A stretch of DNA of 64,000 nt from Rhizophagus irregularis (taxonomy: Eukaryota > Glomeromycota > Glomeromycetes > Glomerales > Glomeraceae). The DNA is taken from contig NC_089430.1 of NCBI RefSeq assembly GCF_026210795.1, positions 5,828,001 to 5,892,000 of the forward strand, written 5' to 3'. Below are positions 31 through 61,677 of the stretch, one piece after another. Numbering within the stretch: the stretch's first letter is position 1; each line of letters begins with the position of its first letter. The notes beneath the pieces are model-generated. The model made no database searches, was not told the DNA's origin, and saw nothing but the letters and a program-made list of their open reading frames with translations. The translations under genes were made by a program, and so were the position numbers.

Positions 31-1361
31 TCATAATTGCACCATCATGTCATCTAATTCATCCGAAATGCCTTTTGAAAGACCAAATAAGGCACCTGTT
101 ATACCTGTTATTGAAGCTAATACTTTATTGTCTGGTTCAAGAGCGCGTCCGGCTTTTGCTCCAAAAATAGCTTTTTCTTCAATACTAAGTTTTCTAAATC
201 CTCTTGAATTTAAATCTTTATTAGTATGGTAAAGATTTCTCTTTCGCTCATACTCTAGTTCTTCTAGAAGTTTTGAATCTTTATAAAGATTTCTCTTTCG
301 CTCATACTCTAGTTCTTCTAGAAGTTCTTGATGCTTCGCTAGAAGTTCTTCATGCTTCGTTAGAAGTTCTTCTTGTTTCGTTAGAAGTTCTTCTTGCCTC
401 GCTAGAGGTTTATCTTGTTCCGCTTGTTGCTCCGCTTTGTAGACTCTTATTGCATCTTCTCTTATTTTATTCTCATCATCTTCCTTTTTTCTTCTTTCTG
501 CTTTTTCCGCTTCTTCTTTTAGACGTTTCTTTTCTTTCTGGTTCTCTTCAAATCGTGTAGTGGTATATAGAACTTGTATATGGCTAATACATTCCTTGAT
601 TTCCATTAATCGTTTTTCGTTGGCTTTTCTTTCATCTTCATTATAATATCGACGCATTGGAGAAACATGCCAACGGTACCCAATTTGTGTAATAAAAGAA
701 CGAAGAATTTCAATTTCATTCCAATCTATTTGTTTATCCATAACTCGTTCTGGGTCTGCTTTGGAAAATACAACGATGAAATTATTTGTCGCATCTTTTC
801 CAAGAAAATTTCTTATGGTATTCAAAACATTCTTTTCCTCATCAGTAATCCTTCCCGCTTCTACAAAGACCATTAAAGTCAAATACAAATAAAATGTACA
901 ATCAAATAAACAACAGTTATTTACATACCTAAAACCAAAAGAATTGCCCTGACCCACCGTCGCATTGATTAACGAATTCGGTTATTTCTTTAAGTGGATC
1001 TACATTTCCACGACTGTCAAATAATCCGGGTGTGTCAACAAGGTCATAATTTTTGTTGTTAATTTTCAATGTTGCTACTTCACATTTACTCGTTTTCGAT
1101 TTCTATATTTTCATTACTTTCTTCATGAATACAATAAAATAAAATGAATCAAAAATATGAAACATAGATATTACAAAACTGCTTGAAGCTGTAAAAGGCT
1201 TATTATCACGATTCCCAAGAAGCTGGTTACCAAGTGTACTTTTCCCGGCACCTACAGTAAATAATTTTGCCTTTAGTTAATATTTACAGTAACGAACGAT
1301 AAGAAATAAATGCCTTGCCGGTTTTTCCTAGCAAGAGGACAACTTCGTTTTGAACATTCAT
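31..1361 (-). CDS. AIG1/GIMAP-like GTPase with coiled-coil tail (apparent frameshift)
   Basis: The exons read 1361-1319, 1251-1175, 1102-929 and 860-31. The first intron splits the P-loop codon and appears to use a GC donor (ACCG|GCAAGG); joined, the exons give GKTGAGKST (G1). Exon 3 carries DLVDTPGLFD (G3), and exon 4 carries FSKAD, the likely G4. The C-terminal half is charged coiled coil with heptad copies such as LLTKQEE and a duplicated LLEELEYERKRNLY block. The AIG1 family comprises GTP-binding, often oligomerising, proteins. Near base 957-965 the frame must shift by one base within a G run (GTGGGTC) to recover VRAILLVL, which both paralogs in this window have; as written a stop follows. 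This is either a homopolymer sequencing error or a real inactivation. With the base restored, the length would be about 374 aa. No Hint domain follows. The start was chosen by exon structure and matches the paralogs. Confidence 0.75.
233..420 (-). repeat. Intragenic coding tandem repeats (heptads and a 14-residue block)
   Basis: Within the last exon of the AIG1 gene, a 21-base unit encoding LLTKQEE-like heptads is repeated about five times. Next to it lie two near-identical copies of a block encoding LLEELEYERKRNLY. The copies keep frame and heptad register, so the coiled coil can change length without losing frame. Confidence 0.7.
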
Positions 1362-19090: not shown

Positions 19091-20742
19091 TTTATTTTTA
19101 AACTGAAGTCCATCATAGTCCATCATTTATTGCAGCGGATTTATGAAATTTGGCAAAAATCCTGCTGCGCCCTCAGAAATCAAAATTGACTTACCAAAAC
19201 ATTAAGCTTTTTCCTAAAAAATGTCAAATAATGATGTGCCTTTAATACTGAAATAATTGGTTAGATAATGGGAAAATTGGTTAGATGCAAGATTTAAGGT
19301 ACAAAAAAATTTTTTAGAACTCATTTTTGACTGTTCACTAATAAATTTGGGACTTAAATAGAAATTTGATGACTAAAATAATACCTCATCTAATATTTAT
19401 TTAATTTGACATGACAGACAAATTTTTGGGTATTCTATAAATCCGCCATGATGTATAGGGACATTATTGTCCTAATTTTTAAACTAAAGCCCAACATAGT
19501 CCATAATTATGAGAATATTATTGTCCTCATTTTTAAATTGAAGGCGCATCATAGTCCATAATTATGAGGACATTATTGTCCTCATTTTTAAACTGAAGGC
19601 GCATCATAGTCCATAATTATGAGGACATTATTGTCCTCATTTTAAACTGAAGGCGCATCATAGTCCATGATTACGAGGACATTATTGTCCTCATTTTTAA
19701 ACTGAAGGTTTATCATAGTCCATAATTACGTTAGGACATTATTGTCCTCATTTTTAAACTGAAGGTCTATCATAGTCCATAATTATGAGGACATTGTCCT
19801 CATTTTTGAACTGAAGGCGCATCATAGTCCATAATTACGAGGACATTATTGTCCTAATTTTTAAACTGAAGGTTTGTCATAGTCCATAATTACGTTAGGA
19901 CATTATTGTCCTCATTTTTAAACTGAAGGCACATCATAGTCCATAATTATGAGGACATTATTGTCCTCATTTTTAAACTGAAGGCGCATCATAGTCCATA
20001 ATTACGAGGACATTATTGTCCTCATTTTTAAACTGAAGGTTTGTCATAGTCCATAATTACGTTAGGACATTATTGTCCTCAAGGCACATCATAGTCCATA
20101 ATTATGAGGACATTATTGTCCTCATTTTTAAACTGAAGGCATGTCATTGTCCATAATTACGAGGACATTATTGTCCTCATTTTTAAACTGAAGGCATATC
20201 ATAGTCCATAATTACGAGGACATTATTGTCCTCATTTTTAAATTGAAGGCACTTCATAGTCCATAATTACGAGGACATTATTGTCCTCATTTTTAAACTG
20301 AAGGTTTGTCATAGTCCATAATTACGTTAGGACATTATTGTCCTCATTTTTAAACTGAAGGCGCATCATAGTCCATAATTACGAGGACATTACTGTCCTC
20401 ATTTTTAAACTGAAGGCATGTCATTGTCCATAATTACGAGGACATTATTGTCCTCATTTTTAAACTGAAGGCATATCATAGTCCATAATTACGAGGACAT
20501 TATTGTCCTCATTTTTAAATTGAAGGCACTTCATAGTCCATAATTACGAGGACATTATTGTCCTCATTTTTAAACTAAAGGACTATCACAGTCCATAATT
20601 ATGAGGACATTATTGTCCTCATTTTTAAACTGAAGGACTATCATAGTCCATAATTACGAGGACATTATTGTCCTCATTTTTAAACTGAAGGCGCAACATA
20701 GTCCATAATTACGGGGACATTATTGTCCTCATTCTGAACCAA
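19091..20742 (-). repeat. Right subterminal array, about 24 copies, opposite orientation
   Basis: The unit is the reverse complement of the left array: GAGGACATTATTGTCCTC, ATTTTTAAACTGAAGG, a variable core, then CATAGTCCATAATTA. Copies recur every 50-58 bases up to 20714. A MITE (19121-19452) has split off the innermost unit. Some units carry an extra TTA (ACGTTAGGACATT), a sub-variant not seen on the left. Confidence 0.88.
19121..19452. mobile_element. MITE, same family, copy B, nested in the right array
   Basis: The ends CATCATTTATTGCAGCGGAT and ATCCGCCATGATG are inverted repeats. The interior matches copy A (CCTGCTGCGCCC, ACTGTTCACTAATAAATTTG, TGACATGACAGACAAATTTT). It interrupts an array unit, since AACTGAAGTCCATCATAGTC lies outside it on the left, so it inserted after the array existed. 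Confidence 0.7.
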
Positions 20743-20843
20743 TCAGATCCCGTGGGCTACATATGCCCATGGGCAGTTTATAAGCTATAAGTTAGCGCAC
20801 GAACATCCAGCTTATAAACTATGTCGATCATTTGGCTGGGGTG
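20658..20843 (-). repeat. Right terminal inverted repeat, 186 bp
   Basis: This is an exact reverse complement of 2427-2612, ending GGCTGGGGTG. Confidence 0.9.
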
Positions 20844-22799: not shown

Positions 22800-25700
22800 A
22801 TGGACACATTAATTAAGAAACTAAAAATTGATAAGAAATGCAAAAAGTGTAAATTTAAATGTAATGCAATATATTTTCAACAAAATTTCAAAAATTGGAC
22901 AAGTGGGAATAAATATATTGATAAATTTATTCAAGATACTCAGCTATCGGCTCATTATAACACAAAAGAGGCATTGGAATGGATACCTTATGATAGATTT
23001 TATGATATTAAATATATTGAGAAAAAAAAAATGTATAGAGCAAATTGGATTGATGGATATATTTACGAATGGGATGATGAAAATCAAAATGGGAGAAGAA
23101 ATGGTGAAAATATGTCAGTAGGTTTAGTAGACTTGAAAAATTCAAATAATTCAAAAAATATTGAATTAGAATTAACTAATAAGGTAATATAATAAATTTA
23201 TTATTTTTAATTAAGAATTTTTATAACTATCACCGGATGATGATCACCAGTGACTGAAATTATGACGATCGACCAGCATTAAAATAGTGCCGGTAAAAAT
23301 TGATAATTCTGGCCAACGGTGATGATCACCCCGGTGATTTGAAGTAATTAAATTTTGAAAATTTTTATTTTTACTGTGAATTATAATTGTAGGTTAATAG
23401 AATATATGGAATAACTCAAGACCTTCAAACAAAAAATTATAAGATGGTTTTGGGTGATGAATGTGAAATATGTAATTATTTATGCAATGCAGTACACTTT
23501 CAACAAAATTTTGAAAATTGGACTAGTGGTAATGATGATATTGATAAATTTATTCAAGATACTCAGTTATCAGCCCATGCAAGAAAGGCACTAGAATGGA
23601 TTCCTTATGATAGATTTCATGATATTAGATATATTTCAGAAAAAAATGTGTATAGAGCAAATTGGATTGATGGATATATTTATGAATGGGATTATGAAAA
23701 TCAAAATTGGAGAAGAAATGATGAAAATATGTCAGTAGATTTGAAAAGTTTAGATAATCCAAAAAGTATCAAATTAGGATTTACTGATGAGGTATAAGTA
23801 GTTTATTATTTTTAATTAAATTTTGAAATTTTTAACTTTTACTGTGCATTATGTTTGTAGGTTAATAGAATTTATGGAATAACTCAAGATCCACAAACAA
23901 AAAATTATATGATGATTTTGAGTGATAAATGTAAATTATGTAATCTTATATGTAGCTCAATTCACTTTCAACAAAATTTTGGGAGTTGGACTAGTGGTAA
24001 TGATGAAATTGATAAATTTATTCAAGATACTCAGTTATCAGCCCATGATAATGCAGGAAAGGCACTAGAATGGATTCCTTATGATAGATTTCGTAATATT
24101 AAATATATTGAGGGAAAAAAAGTGTGTAGAGCAAATTGGATTGATGGATATATTAATGAATTGGATAATGAAAATCAAAATTGGAAGCGAAATGGTAAAA
24201 ATAAGTTAGTAGATTTAGTAGATTTGAAAAGTACAAACAATCCAAAAAATATCAAATTAGTATTAACTAATAAGGTACTACTATTATAAATTTATTATTT
24301 TAATTAAATTTTTAAAATTTTTAATTTTACTGCGTATTATATTTGTAGGTTAATACAATTTATGGAATAACTCAAGATCCACAAACAAAAGATTATATGA
24401 TGGTATTGAATGATAAATGTAAAAAATGTAATTATGCATGTAATGCAATACACTTTCAACAAAACTTTGAAAGTTGGACTAGTGGTAATGATGATATTGA
24501 TAAATTTATTCAAGATATTCAGCTATCAGTTCATTATAGCATAAAGGAAGCATTAGAATGGATACCTTATGATAGATTTCGTGAAATTAAACATATTGAG
24601 GAAAAAAAAGTGTGTAGAGCAAATTGGATTGACGGATGTATTTCTGAATGGAATAATTATGATCAAAATTGGAAAAGATCTGACAAAAATATGTTAGTAG
24701 CTTTTAAAAGTTTAAATAATCCGACAAAGTTTACATTAGAATTTATAAACAAGGTATTATTAGAATTTTGAAATCTTAATTTTGCTATTTTTACTAACAT
24801 GTTATTTTATAGCTTAAAATAGATTATATAGTTTATGGAATGACTCAAAATCCACAAACAAAAGATTATATGATGGTATTGAATGATAAATGTAAAAAAT
24901 GTAAGCATATATGTTATGCAATACACTTTCAACAAAATTTTGAAAGTTGGACTAGTGGTAATGATAACATTGATAAATTTATTCAAGACACTCAGCTATC
25001 AGCTCATTATAGCATAAAGGAAGCATTAGAATGGATACCTTATGATAGATTTCGTGATATTAAACATATTGAGGAAAAAAAAGTGCGTGTAGCAAATTGG
25101 ATTGATGGATACATTGATGGATGGGATAATGAAAATCAAAATTGGAAAAGATTCAACAAAAGTATGTCAGTAGTTTTGAAAAGTTTACTAAACAATCCAA
25201 AAAATATTAAATTAGAAAGTACTAATGAGGTAAAATAAATTTATTATTTTAATTAAATTTTAAAATTTTGAAATTTTTTAATTTTTACTGTGTATTATAT
25301 TTGTAGGTTAATAGACTTTATGGAATAACTCAAGATCCACAAACAAAAGATTATATGATGGTATTGAATGATAAATGTAAAAAATGTAATTATGTATGTA
25401 ATGCAATACACTTTCAACAAAACTTTGAAAGCTGGACTAGTGTAAATGATTATATTGATAAATTTATTCAAGACACTCAGCTATTAGCTCATTATAGGTC
25501 AGAAGAGGCATTGGAATGGATATCTTATGATAGATTTCGTGATATTAAACATATTGAGGAAAAAAAAGTGTGTAGAGCAAATTGGATTGATGGATACATT
25601 GATGGATGGGATAATGAAAATCAAAATTGGAAAAGATTCAACCAAAATATGTTGGTAGATTTGAAATATTTAAATGGCCCAAAAAATGCTACATTAGAAT

Positions 25701-28700
25701 TTGTAAATAAGGTATTATTGAAATTTTGAAATTTTAATTTTGCTATTTCTATTAACATGTTATATTTATAGCTTAAAATAGATTATATAGTTTATGGAGT
25801 GACTCAAAATCCACAAACAAAAGATTATATGATGGTATTGAATGATAAATGTAAAAAATGTAACCGTGTATGTTATGCAATACACTTTCAACAAAATTTT
25901 GAAAGTTGGACTAGTGGTAATGATTATATTGATAAATTTATTCAAGACACTCAGCTATCAGCTCATTATATCATAAAGGAAGCATTAGAATGGATACCTT
26001 ATAATAGATTTCGTGATATTAAATATATTGAGGAAAAAAAAGTGCGTGGAGCAAATTGGATTGATGGATACATTAATGAATGGAATAATGAAAATCAAAA
26101 TCGGAAAAGATTCCACAAAAATATGTCAGTAGTTTTGAAAAGTTTAAACAATCCAAAAAATATTAAATTAGAAAGTACTAATGAGGTAAAAATAAATTTA
26201 TTATTTTAATTAAATTTTTAAAATTTTGAATTTTTTTAATTTTTACTGTGTATTATATTTGTAGGTTAATAGACTTTATGGAATAACTCAAGATCCACAA
26301 ACAAAAGATTATATGATGGTATTGAATGATAAATGTAAAAAATGTAATTATGTATGTAATGCAATACACTTTCAACAAAACTTTGAAAGTTGGACTAGTG
26401 TAAATGATGATATTGATAAATTTATTCAAGACACTCAGCTATCAGTTCATTATAGGCCAGAAGAGGCATTGGAATGGATATCCTATGATAGATTTCGTGA
26501 TATTAAACATATTGAGGAAAAAAAAGTGTATAGAGCAAATTGGATTGATGGATACATTAATGAATGGAATAATGAAAATCAAAATTGGAAAAGATTCAAC
26601 CAAAATATGTTGGTAGATTTGAAATATTTAAATGACCCAAAAAATGCTACATTAGTATTTGTGAATAAGGTATTATTGAAATTTTGAAATTTTAATTTTA
26701 CTATTTCTATTAACATGTTATATTTATAGTTTAAAATAGATTATATAGTTTATGGAGTGACTCAAAATCCACAAACAAAAGATTATATGATGGTATTGAA
26801 TGATAAATGTAAAAAATGTAACCATGTATGTTATGCAATACATTTTCAACAAAATTTTGAAAGTTGGACTAGTGGTAATAATGATATTGATAAATTTATT
26901 CAAGATACTCAGTTATCAGTTCATGAAGCTAATGAAATATCACATGCATTAGAATGGATACCTTATAATAGATTTTGTGATATTAAACATATTGAAGAAA
27001 AAAAAGTGTATAGAGCAAATTGGATTGATGGATACATTAATGAATGGAATAATGAAAATCAAAATTGGAAAAAATTCAACCAAAATATGTTGGTAGATTT
27101 GAAATATTTAAATGACCCAAAAAATGCTATATTAGAATTTGTGAATAAGGTATTATTGAAATTTTGAAATTTTAATTTTACTATTTCTATTAACATGTTA
27201 TATTTATAGCTTAAAATAGATTATATAGTTTATGGAGTGACTCAAAATCCACAAACAAAAGATTATATGATGGTATTGAATGATAAATGTAAAAAATGTA
27301 ACCGTGTATGTTATGCAATACACTTTCAACAAAATTTTGAAAGTTGGACTAGTGGTAATAATGATATTGATAAATTTATTCAAGATACTCAGTTATCAGT
27401 TCATGAAGCTAATGAAATATCACATGCATTAGAATGGATACCTTATAATAGATTTCGTGATATTAAACATATTGAAGAAAAAAAAGTGTATAGAGCAAAT
27501 TGGATTGATGGATACATTAATGAATGGAATAATGAAAATCAAAATTGGAAAAAACTCAACCAAAATATGTTGGTAGATTTGAAATATTTAAATGACCCAA
27601 AAAATGCTATATTAGAATTTGTGAATAAGGTATTATTGAAATTTTGAAATTTTAATTTTGCTATTTTTATTAACATGTTATATTTATAGCTTAAAATAGA
27701 TTATATAGTTTATGGAGTGACTCAAAATCCACAAACAAAAGATTATATGATGGTATTAAATGATAAATGTAAAAAATGTAACCGTGTATGTTATGCAATA
27801 CACTTTCAACAAAATTTTGAATGTTGGACTAGTGGTAATGATAACATTGATAAATTTATTCAAGACACTCAGCTATTAGCTCATTATAGCACAAAAGGAG
27901 CATTAGAATGGATACCATATAATAAATTTAATGATATTAAGTATATTGAAAAAATTGGAATGTATATAGCAAATTGGATTAATGGATTTGTACATGATTG
28001 GGATTATAAAAGTCAAAGTTGGAGAAGAAAAGATCAAAATATGTATGTGATTCTGAAATATTTTAACACTGTAGAAAATATTGCATCGGTATTTGAGAAT
28101 AGTAAGGTATAATAAATTTATTATTCGTAAAATTTTTATTAATTTTGATTTTCACTAATGCACTATATTTGTAGAAAACTACAATACATAAAATTTATGG
28201 AATAACTCAGAAACCGGGAACAAAAAATTATATGATAGTTTTGAATAATACATGTAAAAAATGTAATTATGAATGTAATGTAACACATTATCAACAGAAT
28301 TTTAAAAATTGGACTAGTGATAATAATGATATTGATAAATTTATTCAGGATACTCAGCTATCAGCCCATAAATATACTACAAGTGCATTAGAATGGATAC
28401 CTTATAATAGATTCCACAATATTGAATATATTGCAAAAGGCGGATTTAGTAAAATATATAAAGCAAACTGGATTGATGGGTATATTCATAAATGGAATAG
28501 ATATAATAATAACTGGGAAAGACAAGATAAAAATATGGTTGTAGCTCTGAAAAGTTTAAATGATTCAAAAAATATTACATTAGAATTTATGAATGAGGTA
28601 TGAATACTTATTACTTAAATTTTTAATAATTTTAATTTTCTAATATCATTTTTTATGCCTTTTATATGTAGTTGATATTTCATCATGAAGTAGAATTTGA

Positions 28701-29815
28701 TCATGGAAGTGTCAAATTCTATGGGATAACTCAAGATCCAGAAACAAATAATTATGTAATGATCTTGGAATATGCAGATGATGGAAGTTTACGAAAATAT
28801 TTGGACGCAAATTTTAATAAATTAAATTGGAAAAGCAAAATTATTTGCTTATTTGAAATTATAACTGAACTTGAATTTATTCATGAAAATAATTTGATTC
28901 ATCGAGACTTGCATATTGGTAATATATTAAAGTTTCAATATAAAACTGCTATAACTGATATGGGATTGTGTAAACCTGCAAATTGTAATACACAAAAAAA
29001 TCACATATATGGTGTTTTGCCTTATATTGCTCCTGAAATTTTACAGGGAAAAACTTATACAAAAGCTGCAGATATTTATAGTTTTGGTATAATTATGTAT
29101 GAAATAATTTCTGGACTACCTCCATATCATGATATGAGACATGATGAATATTTAGCAATAAAAATCTGTAATGGAATTAGACCAAGATTTAATATTAAAA
29201 TACCTCAATTAATTGTGCATTTAATTAAAAGATGCCTAGATGCAAATCCATCAAAGAGATTAAAAGCGGAAGAAATTAGAGATATTTTATACATATGGCA
29301 ATATAAATCAACTAACAAACAAACGATAAAATTACAAGCACAAATTAAAGAAGCAGATTTAGTAAACAATAATTTATCAAATAATAGTATGCTTTCAACT
29401 AGTTTATCATATAAAACACACTCAGAAGCTACTTATACAAGTAGATTACTTGAATTTAATAATCTTCCTGAACCAAAAAATTCTGATGATTATTATGAAC
29501 AAAATGATAACATAATTAGCATTAAAACTTCAGGTAGTGTTTAATAAAAAGTATTTAAATTAATTATGAAGAATACTAATAAACTGTTATTTATTAAACA
29601 GTGTCATTATCTCAACAAATTGATGTTTCTCGATTGGACATTAATGATAATAATCTTTCTGAACCAAAAAATTCTGTCTACGAACAAAATAATGACATAA
29701 CAAGCATGGAATGTTCAGGTATTAATTAAATATTTATGAAATAAATTGAGATTTATAAATACTAATAAATTTATTTTGTTAAGTAGAATCTTTACAAATT
29801 GATATTCTCAATTGA
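22800..29815 (+). CDS. Giant protein kinase with twelve tandem N-lobe modules (1,976 aa)
   Basis: Fifteen exons join in frame: 22800-23183, 23393-23791, 23861-24274, 24349-24753, 24813-25229, 25307-25711, 25772-26185, 26265-26669, 26730-27149, 27210-27629, 27690-28106, 28175-28597, 28672-29533, 29602-29718 and 29787-29815. Exons 2-12 are phase-0 duplicates of 133-141 codons; exon 1 is a related 128-codon module. Each holds a Cys cluster (KCKKCNYVCNAIHFQQNF), WTSGN..IDKFIQDTQ, EALEWIPYDRF, a degenerate glycine loop (IEEKKVCRANWIDGYI) and a VxLKSLNN strand. Only exon 12 keeps a proper loop (IAKGGFSKIYKANW) and VALKSL. Exon 13 adds HRDLHIGNIL, ITDMGLCKP (DMG for DFG), YIAPEIL and DIYSFGIIMYE. 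One active kinase domain (about residues 1560-1860) should therefore follow eleven dead N-lobes. Separate genes are less likely because no module has its own stop-to-start boundary. Expression as one mRNA is inferred. Confidence 0.8.
23229..23338. mobile_element. 110-bp MITE in intron 1 of the kinase gene
   Basis: ATCACCGG at the left and CCGGTGAT at the right are inverted ends, and inner parts also pair (GATGATCACC with GGTGATGATC). It explains why intron 1 is 209 nt while the other introns are about 60-80 nt. A related element sits in the last intron of the second kinase gene (40109-40238). Confidence 0.6.
24813..28106 (+). repeat. Recently amplified exon-intron units of the kinase gene
   Basis: Two exon types alternate: one begins LKIDYIVYGVTQNPQ, the other VNRLYGITQDPQ. 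Exons 5+6 and 7+8 repeat as a dimer of about 960 bases. Exons 9 and 10, with their introns (26730-27209 and 27210-27689), are nearly identical 480-base monomers. Exon and intron are copied together, so the mechanism is segmental duplication by unequal exchange, not retro-copying. Confidence 0.85.
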
Positions 29816-31757: not shown

Positions 31758-34700
31758 TCAATTCAATGACCTTTTTAATACCTCGATGTCATCATTTATA
31801 TCATCATTTTTAGGTAATACGTTAATAGTATTACTTTTAGATTTTTTTCCCGCCGTTTTTTGTTTATTCTTCACGTTAGGTTTAATATTAATAACATTAT
31901 TTACATTACTTTCACTAGTTTCATTAACAATATCGCACAAAACATCATATGCCACCCAAGGAAAAGAAATCATCCTTTCGGAAGGATTACCTTTTAATTC
32001 TGCGGGATGATATGTTACAAAATACCAAGCAGCAGCTTTAGCTCTCATTCTATTATGAGCTACAGGTGAAATTATATTAGTTCCTTTTCCATAAAATTCT
32101 TCTTCAAATAATTTTCGATAATGTCGTCTAATTGAAATAAAAGCATCCATCACGGATTTATTTATATCTCGTGATTTTTTTCTTTCTAAATTTATGATAG
32201 TATTCACGATATATCCACTAGTCACTTCAAATTCAGTTTTAACACCATATTGATTCATTAATCCTTTTATATCTGCATCATATGTACTTTTGATCTTTCG
32301 TGCCTCCTCCACATAAGTTTTATATCCTTGAACATGTAATCTATCATCAAGAACCATTTGATAACTTGGATTAAACGCTTCTTCATTAATAGAACGATAT
32401 AATATACCTAAAACTTTTTCCGATATATAAGTAGGTTTATCATGTTTTTCCATAAAATCTGGAAAAGTATTAGCTCGAAGTACTGATGATAGTATTGCTG
32501 GTTTTCCTGTTTTTGGAAAATCTACTGCTTCGGAATGTAATTGTGCCAATCTTATACATTGTCCGTGAAATGCCCCAGTTTCAAAATGATCTGCTTTCGC
32601 CAAATGTGAATTTGCTATTATACCAAGTTGATCAGATAAAATATAATTTACAAAAAATGATTGAACATCTTCAATTGTTACATTTTCAATATAGTCAGGT
32701 CTTTGAGCTTCATATGCCATAGGTTCAATACGTTTTTTCTTGGGGATTAGACGTTCATCATATATAATACTAAAAAAAAAAATTTTTTTTTATTAACGAT
32801 AAATTTTTATTAACGATAAATTTAAAAAGAAATAATTCAAAAAAACTTTAATTATTTATACTTACGTAAAATCGTCACCATCTAAATCGCCACCACTACA
32901 TTGACTAGGGATATCTCGATAACCAGTCGCTGGGAATACCACAACATCCATAAGATTACTCAAATTTTTACAATTAACAGCTGTAACTACTCGTATATCA
33001 CCAGGATGAAAGCATGGATTTCGAAACACAATACAGGTTCCAGTGATCACTCTTCTACCATTTCTACCATTTGGATCTGTGACGCAACAATAAATTTCAT
33101 TTTCATTTAAACTTTGAGTTTCATCTAAAACTCCTAATAAAAATGCGCCTTTTTCTACACGGATTTTAGCTTTTTTCTTGAGATCTCTCAACATCACAAG
33201 ACGGAATAAGGAAATTAAATTCGTAACATAAGGATCTTTTATTTGTAAAAATCCGGCTTTTACAAGATCTGCCAATTCCCTTGATATCCCATATTCATCA
33301 GAATTTTTTTGTAAAAGTTTTATAGCCGTTCTTTCATCATTAAATATTTTGTTCAATTCATTAACTTGTAAATCTTTCATTTCAATGAATACATTATCAG
33401 GTATTCCTAATGTAGATAATAATGTTATGGCTTGTCGATTAAGATATGCTGGAATAAAATTCGAACATCTAATAACTTCCAATACATTATGACTAGATTC
33501 AAATTTATATTGACTAGGACGAACTTTTATCTCATCACCTCGTACGAAACGTGATTGGCATAATACACCCTTGTAACCAGCCAGTCTAAATTGAAAAGCA
33601 CTAGGAATATATTTTAATTCTAATTCTTGAGCGATTTTATTTGCTAATGAAAAAGATAATTTTCCGGTACCATCAGAAAATGTGTAACCATTTTTAACGA
33701 TATCAGATATTTCTTCAATATTATTCACAGGTAAATCTTGAATTTCACGGGTACTTGAAAAACATTGCCCCATACGAGCAGCATATTTTGCAACATTTTT
33801 AATACTGGTAAAATCCCCCATCCAATCCCTAATATGATTTGCGGTTAAATCCTCAGTTGATGCGAAAAACCAACAAGAATGATCCCTTAATTGACTTGAA
33901 GAAAAAGCCAAAAATTCGTAATGTCTATTACCAATCTTGATACCACGATTTAAAGTATGATAAATTCTATTGTATAAAGCGTAAATATTATTCCCATTTG
34001 AAGAACCAACTTTTCCACATGCTTCATCTACAAATTGAATACGTAAAAAATTATCCATTTTATCACGAAAACGTCGAATCACTCTATTTGAAGTTTCAAT
34101 AGTAGGATGTAAAAGATACATAGTTGTAGGAGAGATTACAACTTTACGCATCATAACACAATGTGATGGTATATATTTTGGATTAATATCGACATGATTA
34201 GATTTTATGATCTGCAACTCAGATCGTAAATATGTCAAAGGATCGTAAATACGTTTCTTTCTTGAGTAAATCCCCTCCAATATATAAATAGCGACATGAA
34301 TTGGTAATTTTGATAATAAAATAATGAAATCTTCCTTAAGATTATAATTATTAAGATAATTAAAAGAAATATTACTTTCTAACATATAAAGAACACGAAA
34401 ATTTAACTTTGAACGATCAACAACTTTTTGTAAAATACTTCCATCAATGGTACATAATGGGATCGTTTCATCAATATTAATATTTTTTGATACTAAATTA
34501 TATTCTTTGGATAAGTCAATCATTCTCTTAAAACGTTTAACACCTTCAAAAGGTTTGTCACCAACCATATCTAAATTTAAAGTAATCCTAAAAGCGAGAC
34601 ATCTACCCAATTTTTCACTTTTATCAGGCATATTAGGTTGAAGAGGTATTTCCTTTTCTTCTTTAGATTTTGGAGTAACGCGAAGTTCAGTTTTACGCTT

Positions 34701-35515
34701 CCAAGAATCATCATAACACCAATTGAAATTGTCTTTAGATTGTAATCTATTATCCAATACCCAATATTTTGCAGGAAACTTATTAGCAATAGTTATTGAA
34801 CCGATAGGACCTTTTTCCGTATTTTCAAGTACAACATGAAAGTCACCATCTACATCTTTAAAAGCGATTTCCAACTTAAAAAAGTGACATCTTTGATCGA
34901 ACGGAACACCAAATTCGATTATTATACAACGTCTTTGATAATTAATAGTGAATTTCACAGCTTCGATATATTTAAATTCCGGAACAAAAGTATTCGGATC
35001 TAGATAACCTCCCATCTCTAAACTTGCAGCTGGAAAAGTATAAAATTTTAATTTTGTTTTCCCATCTTGATCGACAAAAGTCATTGTACTATGACTATGA
35101 TAAGCTATTCTTAAAAGTTTTCTATTGATACGTATTTGTTTAGCCCAAAATGGGTAATCGGGTACAGGTCTATGGAAAAAAAAAAAATAAATAATTTTTT
35201 TTATGATAAATAAATTGATGACGATTTTAGGTAACAATAACAAACAAAATAAAAATAAGATTATACGAACTTGAAAGTGACATATGCAACGCCTTTACTT
35301 TCATCATCATCTGTCGTTTCAATTTCTACCTTATGAACGGCTCCATGATCGCTAAATAAATTTCTCAAATCTTGTTCCTTAACGTGAGTAGGAATACCGG
35401 TAACTTTAAATTTTAATTCGATAAAATTTCTCCAATCTTTAGGAGTACCATCTTCAAAAGTATTTATAATGTTAATATTGTTATTATTGTAACGTCGATT
35501 GTTGTTGCGGTTCAT
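31758..35515 (-). CDS. RRM-containing RNA-dependent RNA polymerase
   Basis: Three exons, 35515-35271, 35169-32866 and 32769-31758, join in frame to 1,186 aa. Residues about 30-80 form an RRM (FKVTGIPTHVKEQDLRNLF, KGVAYVTF). The large exon is the cellular RdRP fold (QDE-1/RDR family, eukaryotic RNAi). It includes CFFASTEDLTANHIRDWMG-like words (read SSQLRDHSCWFFASTED), YTFSDGTGKLS, FQFRLAGYKGVLC and the catalytic loop GGDLDGDDF (D843, D845, D847, D848). The last exon continues with LIPKKKRIEPM and YILSDQLGIIANSHL and ends in a basic tail. Such enzymes copy single-stranded RNA into double-stranded RNA for Dicer. The exon 1 donor (AA|GTTCGT) was chosen because it keeps frame. No break was seen. 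Confidence 0.92.
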
Positions 35516-39868: not shown

Positions 39869-42206
39869 CTAATTCTTGTAAAATTTAGAGATATCAATCT
39901 GTTGAGAATCACCAATTTGCAGTAAAATATCGATTTGTTGAGAATCGTTAATTTTCGGCGAAATATCGATACGTTGAGTTTGTTGAGAATCAACAATATT
40001 ATTTAGCAAAGATTCTATTTAATGAATTTCATTAGTATAATATAATTTAAATATTTATTCTGCATATATAACAAAAATTATTAATTAATATTTAAGGGTA
40101 TTACTAAATATCACCAGTGGTCACTAGCGGTGAATTTATGATGTAATGTCGGCCAGCCAGTATTTTATTTTATTAGATTTTAATTCTGGCTAAAAGTACA
40201 TCATTAATGCTGGTATGGTGACCATCACCACTGGTGAGCTTTAGCAATAATTAATACCTAAATATTCCTTGCTTATTATATTATTATTTTGTTTGTAATA
40301 ATCATCAGAATTTCTTGGTTTAGGAAGATTATCAAAATTAAGTAATCTACTTGTATAAATAGCTTCCGAATGCGTTTTATATAATGATCCTAACCTAATT
40401 GAAGTGAATAATTCATTATTACTTCCTTCCACTTCTTTAATTTGCTTTTTTAATTCTGTTTGATCTGAATCAGACGATTTACTAAATTCATGAGCCCATT
40501 CTCTTAAAATTTTGCAAATTTCTATTGCTTTTGGTCGATTCAATGGATTTGCATCTAAACATCTTTTAATTAAATGCACAATTAATTGAGGTACATTAAT
40601 ATTAAACCTTGGTCTAAGTCCCTGGCAAATTTTTATTGCTAAATTTTCATCATGGCCTATATTATAATATGGAGGTAATCCGGAAATTAATTCATACATA
40701 ATTATACCAAAACTATAAATATCTGCGGCTTTGGTATAATTTTGACCTTGTAAAATTTCAGGAGCAATATAAGGTAAAACACCGTATACACTATTTTTTG
40801 TACTTTCTGATTCACTGTAATCTGCAGGTTTACATAATCTCATATCAGTAATACAAACACTACCTCTATGTAATATGTTGCCAACATGTAGATCCCGATG
40901 AATTAATTTATGAAAATGAATATGATTAAGTCCAAATGCAATATCATATAAATAATCAATCTTATTTTTCCAATTTATTATATTATAATTCATGTCTAAA
41001 TATTTTCGTAAACTTCCATTTTCTGCATAATCCAAAATCATTATATAATTTTGTGTTTTTGGATCCTGAGATATTCCATAAAGTTTAATAATACTAGCAT
41101 AATTATTTATTTTATGATGTTGTGTAATCTATAATATACAAAGAAGATGCATCAACAAAAATAAATATATTAAAATTTCATCATCATTAAAATAAATAAA
41201 TTTATACCTCATTCATAAATTCTAATGTAATATTTCTTGAACTATCTAAACTTTTTAAAGCCACAAATTTATTTGGATATTCTCTTTTCCAATTTAATCT
41301 TTCATCATCCCATTTACTTATATGTCCATCAATCCAATTTGCTTTATATATTTTTCCAAACCCTCCTTTTGCAATATATTTAGTATTATTAAGTTTATTA
41401 TAAGGTATCCATTCTAATGCTCTCTTTATATCATTATGAGCTGATAATTGAGTATTTTGAATAAATTTATCAATGTCGTCATTACCACTAGTCCAATTTT
41501 TAAAATTTTGTTGAAAATATATTGCATTACATGGATAATCACATTTTATGCATTATATATATGAGCTGATAGCTGAGTATCTTGTATATATTTATCAATA
41601 TCATCATTACTACTAGTCCAATTTTCAAAATTTTGCTTAAAGAGTATTGCTATTGCATTGCACACATTATTACATTTTTTGCATTTATTAATCAAAACCA
41701 TCATATAATTTTCTGTTAATGGATCTTGAGTAATTCCATAAAATTTATAATTACTTTTAATCTACAAATATAACAAATTAGTAAAAAAATAATAAAAATT
41801 AACCCTAAAAATTCATTAAATATACCTCATTCATAAATTCTAATGTAATATTTTTTGGATTATTTAAACTTTTCAATTCTACCAGCATGTTTTTATTAAA
41901 TCTTATCCAATTTCGATTTTTACTATCCCATTCACTAATATATCCATCAATCCAATTTGCTCTGTATATTCCAATTTTTTCAAAATATTTAATATTATGA
42001 AATCTATCATAAGGTATCCATTCTAATGCTTTTTGTGTATCACCATGAGCCAATAACTGGGTACTTTGAATAAATTTATCAATTTCAACACTACCACTAG
42101 TCCAACTTTCAAAATTTTGTTTAAAATATTTTACATAACAACTTACAGAACTACATTCTTTACACTTATCAATCAAAAATAGCTGAAAAAAATTCGTAAG
42201 ACTCAT
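39869..42206 (-). pseudogene. Second kinase gene of the same family, with out-of-frame module junction
   Basis: Exons 42206-41826, 41761-41208, 41128-40258 and 40014-39869 follow the plan of the big kinase gene. Exon 1 is a degenerate module (FEKIGIYRANW). Exon 2 fuses the first part of one module (to DTQLSAH, near 41560) to the start of another. The junction is out of frame: its length is 2 modulo 3 and a stop follows at the join. Beyond it a good N-lobe appears (IAKGGFGKIYKANW, FVALKSL). Exon 3 holds HRDLHVGNIL, ITDMRLCKP (DMR instead of DFG/DMG), YIAPEIL and DIYSFGIIMYE. The last exon encodes repeated DSQQIDI units. Unless the junction is an assembly error, only the C-terminal part could be expressed intact. 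Confidence 0.75.
40109..40238. mobile_element. MITE in the last intron of the second kinase gene
   Basis: Inverted ends TATCACCAGTGGTCAC and GTGACCATCACCACTGGTGA flank a short AT-rich core with TCGGCCAGCCAG and TTCTGGCTAAAAG. The family resemblance to 23229-23338 lies in the ATCACC ends and the central CCAGC and TTCTGGC words. Confidence 0.55.
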
Positions 42207-54559: not shown

Positions 54560-56639
54560 ATGATTTCAAATTCCGATTCATCATATTCTAAAGTCGAATC
54601 ATCACCTTATACTCCCGTTGTAATTAACGTTGAAAATGGTGAAGTGGTTCATCAGGTTAGAACAATATATGTTTTTATATAAATTGATTCATCATAAACT
54701 ATTATTGATGAGATAATATTTTTCTATTTATGTAACTTAGCGTATTTTATTAATTTATGGGCGTGCGGGTCCACAAGATATGAACTTTGAATCAAAGATT
54801 ACAGTTGAACATCATGTAAATAATTTTCCATCAACAACTTGGCAAGTTTTTAATTCTCATTTCAAATGTTTAGTACATTTAGATGCAGGTTTAAATAATA
54901 TTAAATTTATTCTTGATACATCACCATTTTCTTCTGATTCAAGACCATTAACAACAATATTTCAAGTAAATTATGTTCCATTATTACAAAATCCTCCATT
55001 AAATTTAGCAATTCTTGTAGCAAAAGATTCAAAAGAAATTATTGATGCTCCTGAAGAAAAAGAAAATTCCGGTGAAAATAAATTGGAAAGTGTTAAAGCA
55101 AAACTTCGTTGTGCAGGATATTTATGGCAAGCATTTACTGCAGAACAAATGAGTCGCAATGGATTTGGAAGAAGAGTTTTTAGATTAGATGAAGAATGGA
55201 CGGAAGATACGATTTCAAATCAAAATCCTGGATTAAGACAAACGGCAAAAATTCATATAATTCGTAGTTCATACACGTTAAAACAAATTTTAGATCCAGA
55301 TATAGCGCAACAAAATCCTAATGGAGTTGATGATAAAAAAAAAGATTTATATTCTATATTCATGGACAGTTTAAAAGAATATGGTGCTCCATTCGATAAA
55401 CAATGTTACGTTGCAGGATTAATTTTGGATTCTCATTATGATACTTCACCTAACATGGGATTCATTAGAGGTCATGCCGCATTAGGAGGTGGTTGGGATA
55501 ACATTCGACTAGGAATTTTTGGTAGTCATTTGACACATGCTTGGCCAAGATACCTTGAAGAAGTTGTTAGTTGTTTTCAAGATAATACCATCACAGATGA
55601 GAACAGATTGTCTAATGATGCAGGAGAAAGTGGAACATGGTGGAGATGTTGTAATATTGGAATTGGTGCATTTTTACATGAAGTCGGTCATTGTTTGACC
55701 GCACCTCATTCTCCAAGTGGAATTATGTCAAGAGGGTTTAATAATTTAAATCGTACATTTACGGTTAAAGAACCAAATAATCCTTTTCCAACGACACCAT
55801 CTGAAGAAGAAGGTGCACATTGGTATAGAAGTAATGTTATAAGATTTAGATATCATCCATGTTTCCGTTTGCCTTTTGAACCACCAGCAAAAATTGATCT
55901 TAAAAATATTGGAGCAGATTTTTGGATTTTAAATAAATTTTTATTAATTAAATGTTCCGCGGGAATTTCATTAATTGAAATTTATGTTAGAAATAATATT
56001 ATTGGTTATTTAGATTATTCTGATGAATATAATCAAACTGAAATTCGATTAAAGGTAGATGAAATTATTAAAAAATATGGTGGGAAATATAATATTATTA
56101 AAATGAATTTCGTAGCAAAGAATCAAACTGAAACTTTTTTACAAAATTTACAAAAATTTTCGGAAGAAAGTAAAATTATATTACCAATATATGGAAAAGT
56201 ATTTAAATCTAATTATTTGGGAAAACTTGATGAAAGTTTAACTGAATTTAAAATTTTATTTAAAAAATTTATTGATACTAAACCTATTACATTAAAAAGA
56301 ATGATTATTAAATATGATGTTTTTATCAATTCGATTACATTTTATTGGTCTGATAATACCAACTTACGTATTGGTATAGATGATGATGAAGGTATTAAAA
56401 AAGAATTTTTATTTGAAGAAGGAGAAAAAATTGTTAAAATTAAAGTTAATTCTGGTTGGTATATTGATGGATTTGAAATCAAAACTAATTTAGGTAGACG
56501 TAGTAAATGGTTTGGTGGTCATGGTGGTAGTAAGCATACATTAGAAGCACCTGATAATGAATATGAAATGATCGGTCTTTATGGTACTGGCAATTATTTT
56601 GTTAATACTTTAGGAATTATTTATAAAAAAATTTCGTAA
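54560..56639 (+). CDS. Zinc metallopeptidase with jacalin-like C-terminal domain
   Basis: Exons 54560-54655 and 54741-56639 join in frame to 664 aa. The zinc site is FLHEVGHCLTAPHSPSGIM (H345, E346, H349, H355), an HExxHxxxxxH metzincin-like pattern. The layout matches the fungal putative peptidase family that includes budding yeast YIL108W. Upstream words CAGYLWQAFTAEQMSRNGF and AALGGGWDNIRLGIFGSHLT are typical of that family. Residues about 545-664 (NSITFYWSD, GGHGGSKHTLEAPDNEYE, GLYGTGNYFVNTLGIIY) form a jacalin-like lectin fold that may bind sugar. No signal peptide is visible, suggesting a cytosolic protein. The gene is intact and stands alone. Confidence 0.88.
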
Positions 56640-57220: not shown

Positions 57221-58411
57221 ATGGCAGACGCTATGTAAGGAATATGCATAATCTGTTACCGGAAATTCTTATTTCTTAATACTTACCTATTTTCACTCTT
57301 TAGACCTAAACCTCCACCGTTGCAAATCAATGCACCAGTCATACTCTTAGTTGGAAAAACGGGTATGCCTTGATATCGTATCTTTATTTTCGGTCATTTC
57401 TTTTTTTTTCATTGTACATTTGTTTGTAAGGCGCTGGTAAAAGCACTTTGGGAAATTTATTGTTGAAAACCTCTGAAGATGAAAACCCAACTTTCCATGT
57501 TTCCGACAGCTTTGTAAGTAAAAAATATATGTATATAAATAGGGTATTTGTAACTATATTGGTTTTTAACTCTCGAAATTGATTAGTCATCCGTTACTAA
57601 AGAATCTAGTTCTGCGAGTTACGAAATTGGGGACGAAGTTTACAATATTATCGACACGCCAGGGATTTTTGACACTGACGATCCCACCGAAGATATCTTA
57701 GAAGAAATCGCTCGCACCATCCAAAAGTGCGCTTATGGAGTCAGAGCCATATTATTTGTATTTGGTGAGTGAGAATACTGATAATTAAGTTTATGATGAG
57801 ACTAAATTAGAAACATTGTTAAAATGCTGTTTACAGAAGCCAAACGATTCACGAATGAACAAAAGAATACGCTCAATGGAATAACAATGTTTCTTGGAGA
57901 AGAGTCTATCCAATACATGATTTCTGTCTTTTCACATTGTAACAAAAAGCAGACTAAGGATCCAGAATATTTTAAAAATTCTTGCTGGAATGATCCAGTT
58001 AAGGATTTTGTCGATTCCATGAATAATCGGTGGGCTATTTCTCCGAATGCAGATGACTTTCCTCCCGATAATCTTGTGCATAAACAACGCCTCAAAGAAT
58101 TGAAAAAACATATCAACTATAATATAAATGGAGTGTATACAAATAACCTTTTCGAAAAGGCTCGGAAAAAGCAAGAAGAAAATGAAAGAAAAGAGAGAGA
58201 AGCAGAAGAGGAACGAAAAAAAGAATATGAAAAAAATTTAATGAGTAAAGGTGAAGCCCTTGCAAAAAAGTACTACGAGGAACAGAGGAAAAAAGATGAA
58301 GAAAAATTTCTTGAAGAAAAAGAAAAGGAAATTACGAGTATTAAAAACGAATTTCAAGGTGTAATAGATACGCTAAAGGGGGGAACCGGGGGATATTGCC
58401 AAATAGTATAA
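57221..58411 (+). CDS. AIG1-like GTPase with coiled-coil tail (GIN1 paralog lacking Hint)
   Basis: Exons 57221-57234, 57304-57362, 57431-57513, 57587-57764 and 57837-58411 give 302 aa. G1 is GKTGAGKST (residues 22-30), split by an intron at the same codon as in the other AIG1 genes here. G3 is IIDTPGIFD, and VRAILFVF and EAKRFTNEQK follow. The likely G4 is FSHCNKKQTKD. A charged helix (EAEEERKKEYEKN) makes the C-terminal coiled coil, and the protein ends at GGYCQIV. Its tandem neighbour carries a Hint domain at this point. Here the frame ends and decayed Hint-like sequence begins about 390 bases downstream, so the Hint module was probably lost. Start choice is supported by splice phase. Confidence 0.85.
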
Positions 58412-59688: not shown

Positions 59689-61677
59689 ATGATATTAAGT
59701 CCTCCGTTAGTTATCAACGCACCGGTAATACTCTTAGTTGGAAAAACGGGTATGCACTAACATAATGTCTTTCTTTCAGTCATTTCTTTTTTTTTTTTAA
59801 TTGAAAGTAAATTATACATTTATTGTAAGGCGCCGGTAAAAGCACATTAGGAAATTTAATGTTAAGAACGTCTGAAAATGAAAATCCTACCTTTTTTGTT
59901 TCCGATAGCTTTGTAAATATAAAATATATATATTCATGACATTAATATACTGTAATGTTAGTTACTGCATATTCATTTATATTTATTTTCTAACTTCTCA
60001 AATCTTCCGAAATTGAATGACTAGTTATCTGCCACCAAAAACTCTTGTTCCGCGAATTATAAAATTAATGAAGAAACATACAACATTGTCGACACTCCAG
60101 GGGTTTTTGATACTGAAGATCTCGACACAGTTATCTTGGAAGAAATCGCTCGCACTATCCAAAAGTGTGCCTATGGAGTCAAGGCCATATTATTCGTGGT
60201 TGGTCAGTAGAAGTATAGTTGACTATTTTCACGGTAGAACTTAAATTAAATGCATGTATAAAATTATAGAAGCAAAACGGTTCACGAATGAACAAAAGGA
60301 AATGATCAACAGAATATTGTTATTTCTTGGAAAAGAGGCCTCCCGATACATGATTTCTGTTTTCTCGCATTGTAACGCTAAACAGACTAAGGATCTCGAA
60401 TATTTTAAAAGATATTGCTGGAATGATCCAGTTAAGGCTTTCGTCAATTCCGTTGGTAATCGGTGGGCCATTTCTCCTAATCCAGACATTTTCCCGCCCG
60501 ATGATCCAGTGCATGAAGAATGTCTCAAAGAATTGCAAGAACGCATCACCTCTATAGATGGAGTGTATACAAATGACCTTTTCGAGAAGACTCGGAGAGA
60601 GCAAGAAGAAAATGAAAGAAAAGCAAGAGAAGCAGAAGAGAAGCGGCAAAGAGAATACGATGAACTTAGAAGAAGAGAAGGAGAAGCTATTGCAAGAGCG
60701 AACTACGAGAGGCAGAGGGTAGAAGATGAGAGAAGAGCAAATGAAGCTCGGAATAGAGAACTTCAGGATATCAAAAACACACTACGTGAACAAATATCAA
60801 GACTAGACGAAAGAATGACTGAACTTTCCAAAGCCAACGAATATCTTACCAACAGAAATAATCAACTTTCCGACGAAATAAATGAACTCAAAAACAAAAG
60901 TTGTTTCTGGCCTGAAACACAAATTAAGCTCGAATCAGGAAGGATCATTCAAATGTCAGAACTTCAAATAGGGGACCGAGTGTTGTCAAACATAAGGAAT
61001 GGTGTTGCAGAATTCTCAGATGTTTACCTTATCGCTCATATTGGTAAACTCGATCATAAAGCAAAGTTTGCCAAAGTGAACTTTACCAAACCGGATGGAT
61101 CTAAAGGCAATTTTTTTAGTCAATTTTATTACAAATATTAATTATTCATTTACAGTATATTCATTTTAGTGTAATTTTTTTTTTTAGGTCAATTACTGTT
61201 AACGACCACTCACTACGTCTTTGACGAAAATTTATCAATTATATTTGCTAAAAATCTTCGTCCCGGAGAAACAAGAATTTTGGTATCAGATGATGGCAAT
61301 AGGCTAGTTCCAGTATTTGTGGATAATATAACAAATGTGAGTTTGAATCTACATTATAATTTTCATTAAAGATTGTAAAAATTATTTTTCTTGATAGTTA
61401 ACTGATATTTATACAGGAATGGCGTGACAAATATATTAGCTTTTACACACGAGCTGGATCAGTAATTGCCAATGGCGTGCTTAGTTCCTGTTACGATCAT
61501 TGTCCACCGTCTCAAATGCTTATGGATCTAGTTTTTTTACCAGTTCGTTGGTGGACTCGTATAATTCCAAGTACACATCGTGAAGAACGACTTCACCCAT
61601 ATGTTCAGTTCTTAGAAACAGCGTATCTTTCATTTATTAACGCTATGAAAAAGAGTAAACGACTTACTAATAACTAA
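59689..61677 (+). CDS. GIN1: AIG1 GTPase fused to a Hedgehog-type Hint domain (GIN1-like)
   Basis: Exons 59689-59749, 59830-59912, 60025-60202, 60270-61106, 61188-61336 and 61417-61677 give 522 aa. G1 is GKTGAGKST (residues 18-26), G3 is IVDTPGVFD, and the likely G4 is FSHCNAKQTKD. Residues about 200-315 are coiled coil (EEKRQREYDELRRREGEA). The Hint domain begins SCFWPETQIKLESGR (nucleophile candidate C319) with IGDRVLS and YLIAHIGKLDHKAKF. It continues through LLTTTHYVFD (T392/H395, the TxxH block), VIANGVLSSCYD and RWWTRIIPS, ending at residue 522. Exon 4 appears to use a GC donor (AAAG|GCAATT). The architecture matches GIN1 of Glomus mosseae, described with a Hedgehog-like C-terminus. Self-cleavage is predicted from the intact Cys and TxxH. 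The acceptor of the C-terminal reaction (sterol, water or other) cannot be read. Confidence 0.88.

What the first reader, a model, noticed from the sequence alone, without database searches (positions are those of the whole stretch)
22800..29815. Kinase gene with twelve tandem N-lobe exons and a single C-lobe
Twelve exons, phase 0 at each internal boundary, each encode Cys cluster, linker and N-lobe. Eleven have lost the glycine loop; only the last, joined to the C-lobe, looks catalytic. All splice in one frame to 1,976 aa. Exon shuffling has built an array of pseudo-N-lobes that could act as a sensor or scaffold.
Basis: partly seen in the sequence, partly recalled or inferred. Interest (0 to 1): 0.85.

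Follow-up and report, generated by a model that had tools for sequence, protein, structure and literature searches.

The report
Kinases with strings of half-kinase repeats
This fungal gene appears to encode one working protein kinase preceded by eleven copies of its own front half that look unable to bind ATP; the same layout recurs at other places sampled in this genome, which suggests a family of repeat-bearing signalling proteins.

Summary
Twelve phase-0 exons (22800-28597) repeat Cys cluster, helical linker and kinase N-lobe; exon 13 carries one C-lobe. Eleven upstream modules lack the glycine loop (11 of 11); only the twelfth has it, plus VAxK and the alpha-C Glu. The 1,976 aa reading is reproducible. 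I fetched further arrays from the same genome, which looks like Rhizophagus irregularis. In the first sample 20 of 20 unbroken terminal modules, but 3 of 176 upstream ones, have GGF; none of 177 upstream modules keeps loop, Ala, Lys and Glu together. In the second, 5 of 5 arrays that reach a C-lobe end in a GGF module and 0 of 58 upstream modules have GGF. Loop lesions differ between arrays. Framework residues are under strong purifying selection, so the modules are not mere debris. Nearly every internal exon starts with beta4-beta5 of the preceding lobe fused to the next Cys cluster, which points to a founding tandem duplication. Best reading: one kinase with an N-terminal array of ATP-dead N-lobe repeats used for binding or regulation. 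Transcripts and function were not testable; fold and zinc stayed inconclusive.

The parts
22800..23183 (+). exon 1: ATG, Cys cluster, WTSGN helix linker, pseudo-N-lobe beta1-alphaC; no beta4-beta5 prefix; loop YIEKKKMYRANW
23393..23791 (+). exon 2: beta4-beta5 of lobe 1 fused to Cys cluster and pseudo-N-lobe 2 (YISEKNVYRANW)
23861..24274 (+). exon 3, pseudo-N-lobe (YIEGKKVCRANW)
24349..24753 (+). exon 4, pseudo-N-lobe (HIEEKKVCRANW); the only upstream module of the window gene that keeps the Ala of VAxK
24813..25229 (+). exon 5, pseudo-N-lobe (HIEEKKVRVANW)
25307..25711 (+). exon 6, pseudo-N-lobe; near copy of exon 8
25772..26185 (+). exon 7, pseudo-N-lobe; near copy of exon 5
26265..26669 (+). 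exon 8, pseudo-N-lobe; exon submitted to AlphaFold2 (pLDDT 61, inconclusive)
26730..27149 (+). exon 9, pseudo-N-lobe; near-identical to exon 10
27210..27629 (+). exon 10, pseudo-N-lobe
27690..28106 (+). exon 11, pseudo-N-lobe (YIEKIGMYIANW)
28175..28597 (+). exon 12: terminal module with intact loop (YIAKGGFSKIYKANW), VALK and alpha-C Glu
   Evidence: joined to exon 13 it matches PF07714 from profile position 4
28672..29544 (+). exon 13: rest of alpha-C, beta4-beta5 and the only C-lobe (HRDLHIGN, TDMG, IAPE), to TAA; alternative donor after 29533
29602..29718 (+). possible exon 14 (tail), from splice-site letters only
29787..29815 (+). possible exon 15 with stop, from splice-site letters only
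40241..42206 (-). second, short kinase of the same kind: module without loop (41805-42206), interrupted middle module (about 41558-41749), module with loop (41202-41552), C-lobe (40241-41128)

Best explanation
22800-29544 (or to 29815) is one gene for one protein: a kinase of the PF07714 group whose first coding segment has been tandemly multiplied. Seen in sequence: exons after the first carry the beta4-beta5 of the lobe before them and the Cys cluster, linker and beta1-alphaC of the next, as a tandem duplication joining beta5 of the C-lobe exon to the Cys cluster of exon 1 would give; the junctions are phase 0, so copies can be gained or lost without breaking the frame; only the copy next to the C-lobe keeps loop, VAxK and alpha-C Glu. 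Inferred: that copy and the C-lobe form the working kinase; the upstream copies are folded, ATP-dead repeats that serve as a binding and regulatory arm (partner or ligand binding, or docking on the terminal N-lobe to control alpha-C), with length and variable residues changing quickly while the framework is kept.
For: Loop rule: GGF in 20 of 20 unbroken terminal against 3 of 176 upstream modules; loop + Ala + Lys + Glu together in 19 of 20 terminal (L019 has Val for Ala) and 0 of 177 upstream modules. Second sample: 5 of 5 terminal modules before a C-lobe and 0 of 58 upstream ones. Lesions differ between arrays: 3-residue deletion, 4-residue deletion, KDEFGK, KSRFGE, KNKFGK. Beta3 Lys kept in 160 of 176 upstream modules; most letters of WTSGN, LEWIPY and ANWIDG are about as conserved upstream as in terminal modules. 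One-gene layout: 20 of 21 first modules lack beta4-beta5 and 152 of 156 internal ones have it; one C-lobe, after the last module, in 21 of 21 first-sample arrays (in two pieces in L016 and L017); 191 of 197 neighbouring pairs can be joined by phase-0 GT..AG in a lenient search, median intron 72 nt, which I take to leave no room for separate promoters. Selection: the most conserved third of columns has pN/pS 0.15-0.21 against 0.77-0.91 in neutral simulation. Pfam: exons 12+13 joined hit PF07714 at 3.5e-41 from profile position 4; the C-lobe exon alone starts at position 64.
Against: No transcript or protein evidence was available. The module exons taken singly match no Pfam family above its cut-off (12 of 12), and AlphaFold2 gave low confidence with no clear fold match, so 'folded N-lobe' rests on homology to the terminal module. 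The stretch between exon start and beta4 is cut from 15-17 residues to mostly 4 or 7 in internal joints, so the repeats may not keep a standard N-lobe. Overall pN/pS is 0.56-0.67, only moderate constraint. In L017, 2 of 7 upstream modules keep GGF, and in L004, 1 of 4. Some arrays have interrupted modules (window minus strand, L003, L005, L011) or a C-lobe that is split or cut short (L016, L017, L013).
Confidence: 0.55

Rival explanations
1. Passenger exons: unequal exchange keeps adding copies in phase; they are tolerated, not used, and are free of stops only because a stop would cut off the kinase downstream.
For: Phase-0 junctions make gain and loss harmless; overall pN/pS 0.56-0.67 and variable columns near neutral, 0.96-1.15; loops lost in different ways in different arrays; arrays of very different length (3 to 20 modules in the first sample).
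Against: Selection against stops alone predicts pN/pS of 0.77-1.01 in every column class, but the conserved third is at 0.15-0.21. Many framework columns are as conserved upstream as in the catalytic module.
Confidence: 0.22
2. Exon cassette: in-phase modules are skipped or chosen during splicing, so one locus yields many kinase isoforms of different arm length.
For: The module exons are symmetric phase 0, so any number can be skipped in frame.
Against: Only the last module has a loop in nearly all arrays, so choosing another next to the C-lobe would give a dead kinase. No RNA data here.
Confidence: 0.12
3. Mostly silent or decaying loci: the arrays are repeat-like relics, poorly expressed, perhaps methylated, possibly with assembly errors.
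For: In R. irregularis, Ser/Thr/Tyr kinase and Sel1-like families have raised CG methylation (PMC8647823, passages); some arrays have interrupted modules or C-lobes.
Against: Modules look interrupted at 4 places (window 41558, one in L003, one in L005, the last of L011; 6 of 201 module hits), whereas 10% neutral substitution leaves 4.6% of modules stop-free in simulation. The published assembly of matching size is Nanopore-based with 77-85x even coverage (PMC10234402 passages).
Confidence: 0.11

Closest known systems
Expanded tyrosine-kinase-like (PF07714) kinases of Rhizophagus irregularis
   Same: C-lobe exon and exon 12+13 match PF07714. Nine of ten isolated hits I fetched have the same two-exon layout with a single module and GGF. 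Expansion of PF07714 genes is published (PMC6123716 passages; 2,533 members of the kinase repertoire in PMC10234402 passages).
   Different: Here the N-terminal exon is repeated (3 to 20 modules) and nearly all copies but the last look ATP-dead; the papers listed include none whose title or abstract start describes this.
Plant tandem kinase-pseudokinases (TKPs, e.g. WTK1/Yr15)
   Same: A dead kinase part and a live one in one chain (PMC6170490 abstract and outline).
   Different: TKPs are described there as kinase-pseudokinase proteins (I take this as whole domains, recalled); here only N-lobes are repeated and one C-lobe serves.
Janus kinases (pseudokinase JH2 + kinase JH1)
   Same: A non-catalytic kinase-derived part next to a catalytic domain; the TKP abstract makes the JAK parallel. 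The best PDB sequence match of exon 12+13 is 7t6f, named 'Tyrosine-protein kinase', with two matched stretches; that it is a JAK is recalled.
   Different: JH2 has both lobes and occurs once (recalled).
Fungal NLR-like proteins with highly alike WD/ANK/TPR repeats
   Same: In-gene repeat arrays, variable copy number, fixed framework and variable positions (PMC4986451 passages).
   Different: The repeat is a kinase N-lobe, the output is a kinase, and positive selection is at most slight here.

Membership tests
Protein kinase, PF07714 group | significant full-domain match with N- and C-lobe | tested here: met
   exon 12+13 joined: 3.5e-41, profile 4-257 of 258
Protein kinase, PF07714 group | catalytic Lys, alpha-C Glu, HRD Asp, DxG Asp, glycine loop | tested here: met
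   terminal module GGFSK, VALK, NE; exon 13 HRDLHIGN, TDMG; activity itself untested
Pseudokinase (lack of one or several conserved motifs; from the abstract start of PMC4718504 in the listing) | loss of conserved nucleotide-binding motifs in upstream modules | tested here: met
   GGF in 3 of 176 and VAxK Ala in 1 of 172 upstream modules
Pseudokinase | a whole kinase fold with two lobes | tested here: not met
   one C-lobe per array, after the last module, in 21 of 21 first-sample arrays and 5 of 5 second-sample arrays that reach one. So 'pseudo-N-lobe', not a pseudokinase domain
Plant TKP | two or more whole kinase domains in tandem | tested here: not met
   one C-lobe only
Fungal NLR-like receptor | NOD (NACHT/NB-ARC) domain | tested here: not met
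   Pfam on each of exons 1-13 taken singly lists no such domain; tail exons 14-15 not scanned, whole chain not scanned in one piece. The repeat behaviour is an analogy only
Zinc ribbon / zinc-binding module | four conserved Cys/His ligands | tested here: inconclusive
   three Cys at 97-100%, the fourth position H 50-53%, Y 30%; 8 of 9 single-module kinases have CxxC..CxxC; Zn_ribbon_3CxxC hit below its cut-off for joined exons
Kinase N-lobe fold in upstream modules | beta1-5 sheet plus alpha-C | tested here: inconclusive
   AlphaFold2 pLDDT 61 for exon 8, 48 for terminal exon 12; no clear PDB match for exon 8

The most novel reading that the evidence does not exclude
Arbuscular mycorrhizal fungi have turned half of a kinase into a recognition repeat: a genome-wide repertoire of receptor-like kinases in which arrays of up to 20 ATP-dead N-lobes, gained and lost in phase and diverging at variable positions, choose or sense partners while one terminal kinase signals, a kinase-based counterpart of repeat-bearing fungal NLRs.
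Probability: 0.3. Interest if true: 0.85.

Novelty: new variant of a known kind. Interest (0 to 1): 0.64.

Why it matters
The very large kinase set of this fungus is, as far as I know, unexplained. A simple, testable rule (many dead N-lobes, one live one, one C-lobe) repeated over many loci gives a handle on part of that set, and offers a natural case of a half-domain used as a repeat. If the arrays vary between strains, they would be candidates for partner, host or self recognition.

Tried and rejected
Diversifying selection: binning module pairs by pS gave pN/pS about 2 at variable columns. This is inflated, because choosing pairs with low pS raises the ratio. Binned by total divergence it is 0.96-1.15 against all-site pS and 0.85-1.29 against the columns' own pS; bootstrap intervals lie above 1 only in the two most diverged bins. 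I keep 'near neutral or slightly above'.

Introns less diverged than exons: a pairwise aligner suggested this in many arrays; a multiple alignment of whole units gave the opposite in the 8 of 8 arrays I ran (8 of 21 arrays). Dropped.

Codon positions: raw differences among upstream pairs are 0.179, 0.123 and 0.153 at positions 1, 2 and 3, not the third-position excess of strongly constrained genes.

Module tree: 129 columns, 83 of 191 inner branches open; it cannot say how often loops were lost. One clade of terminal modules is not rejected (p 0.71).

Structures: exon 8 (pLDDT 61) and exon 12 (pLDDT 48) are not usable. For exon 8 Foldseek had no match with E <= 0.001; VIA-align listed cystatin-like chains at Z 5.4 or less, which its own note calls middling; no kinase chain is among the 50 rows shown. 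Exon 12 was not fold-searched.

Papers: the ten searches (55 and 61 for comparators) listed nothing whose title or abstract start describes N-lobe arrays. Several lists were capped (15 of 98, 15 of 2,967, 10 of 433), and only open-licence papers are held. Kwon et al. 2019 on pseudokinases (seen only as a reference) is not held; I recall that it reports fungal pseudokinase expansions but have not read it.
Full report
Where it is. The window lies at C2:5828001-5892000 of a 146,748,485-base genome in 32 contigs. A published long-read assembly of Rhizophagus irregularis DAOM197198 has 146,773,001 bases in 32 scaffolds with 77-85x even Nanopore coverage (PMC10234402, passages). I infer the species from that match and from the gene families; nothing in the tools names it.

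The gene. Twelve phase-0 exons with AG|GTA...TAG introns lead into one C-lobe exon. Taken singly, none of the 12 module exons matches a Pfam family above its cut-off. The C-lobe exon matches PF07714 from profile position 64, and exon 12 joined to 13 matches from position 4, 3.5e-41, so the terminal module supplies the missing N-lobe. The upstream modules are called N-lobes by homology to it: the eleven are 55-62% identical to exon 12.

Module anatomy. Exon 1 has no beta4-beta5; in the first sample 20 of 21 first modules lack it, and 152 of 156 internal ones have it. That YGITQDP..MMVL stretch is homologous to the start of the C-lobe exon (family D6), and the first CxxC follows at a near-constant distance: 19 residues after the YG in 140 of 162 internal exons read. 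The likely origin is a tandem duplication with breakpoints in beta5 of the C-lobe exon and just before the Cys cluster of exon 1, later multiplied by unequal exchange. The part between exon start and beta4 is 4 or 7 residues in 162 of 169 internal joints, against 15-17 in 20 of 20 C-lobe exons (2 further joints gave no YG), so the second half of alpha-C and the alpha-C/beta4 loop seem to be missing upstream.

Not one gene but a class. A search with a module sequence scored the best 150 of 4,352 candidates; they fall at 63 places on 17 contigs, 27 of them with two or more hits (gap limit 2,200 bases). A strict DNA pattern, which also fits single-module kinases, occurs 1,130 times, reversed control 0; of the first 100 places listed, 33 lie in 13 clusters with gaps up to 700 bases. 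I fetched 20 stretches covering 19 arrays, 18 of them chosen for likeness to the window, ten isolated hits and seven further clusters taken from the pattern list.

The rule. The first set plus the window's two genes gave 201 module hits; three under 80 residues were dropped, leaving 198: 21 first, 156 internal, 20 terminal and one broken terminal in L011, which reads GGHGK. GGF is present in 20 of 20 terminal and 3 of 176 upstream modules with a readable loop (the exceptions: two in L017, one in L004). The Ala of VAxK is present in 19 of 20 against 1 of 172, Lys in 20 of 20 against 160 of 176, alpha-C Glu in 20 of 20 against 92 of 166, and all four together in 19 of 20 against 0 of 177. One C-lobe follows the last module in 21 of 21 arrays (in two pieces in L016 and L017, starting late in L013). 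In the second set, 5 of 5 arrays that reach a C-lobe end in a GGF module, and 0 of 58 upstream modules with a readable loop have GGF; the L033 stretch ends inside a GGF module before any C-lobe, and L038 stops before its end. That set includes a more distant subfamily: L032, whose modules mostly show two CxxC pairs, and L033-L034, whose modules as listed show no CxxC. Of the ten isolated hits, nine show one module, all with GGF (one, L030, interrupted), no second module in the roughly 700 bases fetched upstream, and a C-lobe; one (L026) is another array.

Loop lesions. Losses are by a 3-residue deletion (EKIGVYR, EEKKVYR), a 4-residue deletion (AKDKYQA), or substitution (KDEFGK, KSRFGE, KNKFGK). 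One type often fills an array, but L005, L009, L010, L014 and L020 are mixed. L017 looks intermediate: loops such as GGFG, GSFG and DGFG, but Ile or Phe in place of the Ala. The tree is too poorly resolved to count events.

Selection. Within arrays dN/dS runs from 0.43 to 0.86, median 0.59, over 20 arrays. With columns classed by variability in the other arrays and pairs binned by total divergence, pN/pS is 0.15-0.21 in the conserved third and 0.96-1.15 in the variable third; neutral simulation gives 0.77-0.91 and 0.85-1.01. Neutral change at 10% of sites would leave 4.6% of modules stop-free. Upstream modules are therefore kept as proteins with a fixed framework. Evidence for diversifying selection is slight: my first, stronger figure was an artefact of binning by pS.

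Mechanism. Seen: the architecture, loss of ATP-site residues upstream, and a kept framework. Inferred: one transcript and one protein; a terminal working kinase; upstream repeats used for binding or control. I favour this over passengers (which fail on the conserved third of columns), over splicing cassettes (which would put a dead lobe on the C-lobe) and over decaying loci (few interruptions). There is no RNA, no activity assay and no usable structure, so I hold the whole at 0.55.

Known relatives. The kinases belong to the expanded PF07714 set of R. irregularis (PMC6123716 passages; PMC10234402 passages). Plant TKPs are kinase-pseudokinase proteins likened to JAKs (PMC6170490 abstract); fungal NLRs use other repeats (PMC4986451 passages). 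My paper searches listed no description of N-lobe arrays; I saw titles, abstract starts and word counts of capped lists, in open-licence papers only.

Noticed in passing
window 40241-42206 (-): A second kinase of the same kind with three modules; the middle one is interrupted after the linker helix and runs, in another frame, into the Cys cluster of the next, as if a deletion had joined two modules.
   Followed up: partly
G000 C2 4.8-5.9 Mb: 81 of the 150 best module hits lie in this 1.1-Mb stretch near one end of contig C2, a hot spot for likeness to this array.
   Followed up: no
L032, L033, L034: A distant subfamily also forms arrays: most L032 modules show two CxxC pairs; in L033 and L034 the listed modules show no CxxC, so beta5 runs almost straight into the W(T/I)SGN-like stretch.
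   Followed up: partly
window 31758-35294 (-): RNA-dependent RNA polymerase gene (PF05183) in two ORFs, about 2 kb downstream of the array.
   Followed up: no
window 20013-20821: Tandem array of about 55-bp units roughly 2 kb upstream of the kinase gene.
   Followed up: no
window 54741-56639 (+): Metallopeptidase (PF12044) with a C-terminal jacalin-like lectin domain (PF01419).
   Followed up: no
window 60245-61141 (+): AIG1-type GTPase fragment (PF04548), a likely coiled coil (by eye) and a Hint-like segment (just under its cut-off) in one ORF; similar ORFs at 57806-58411 (+) and 31-981 (-) judged by eye.
   Followed up: no
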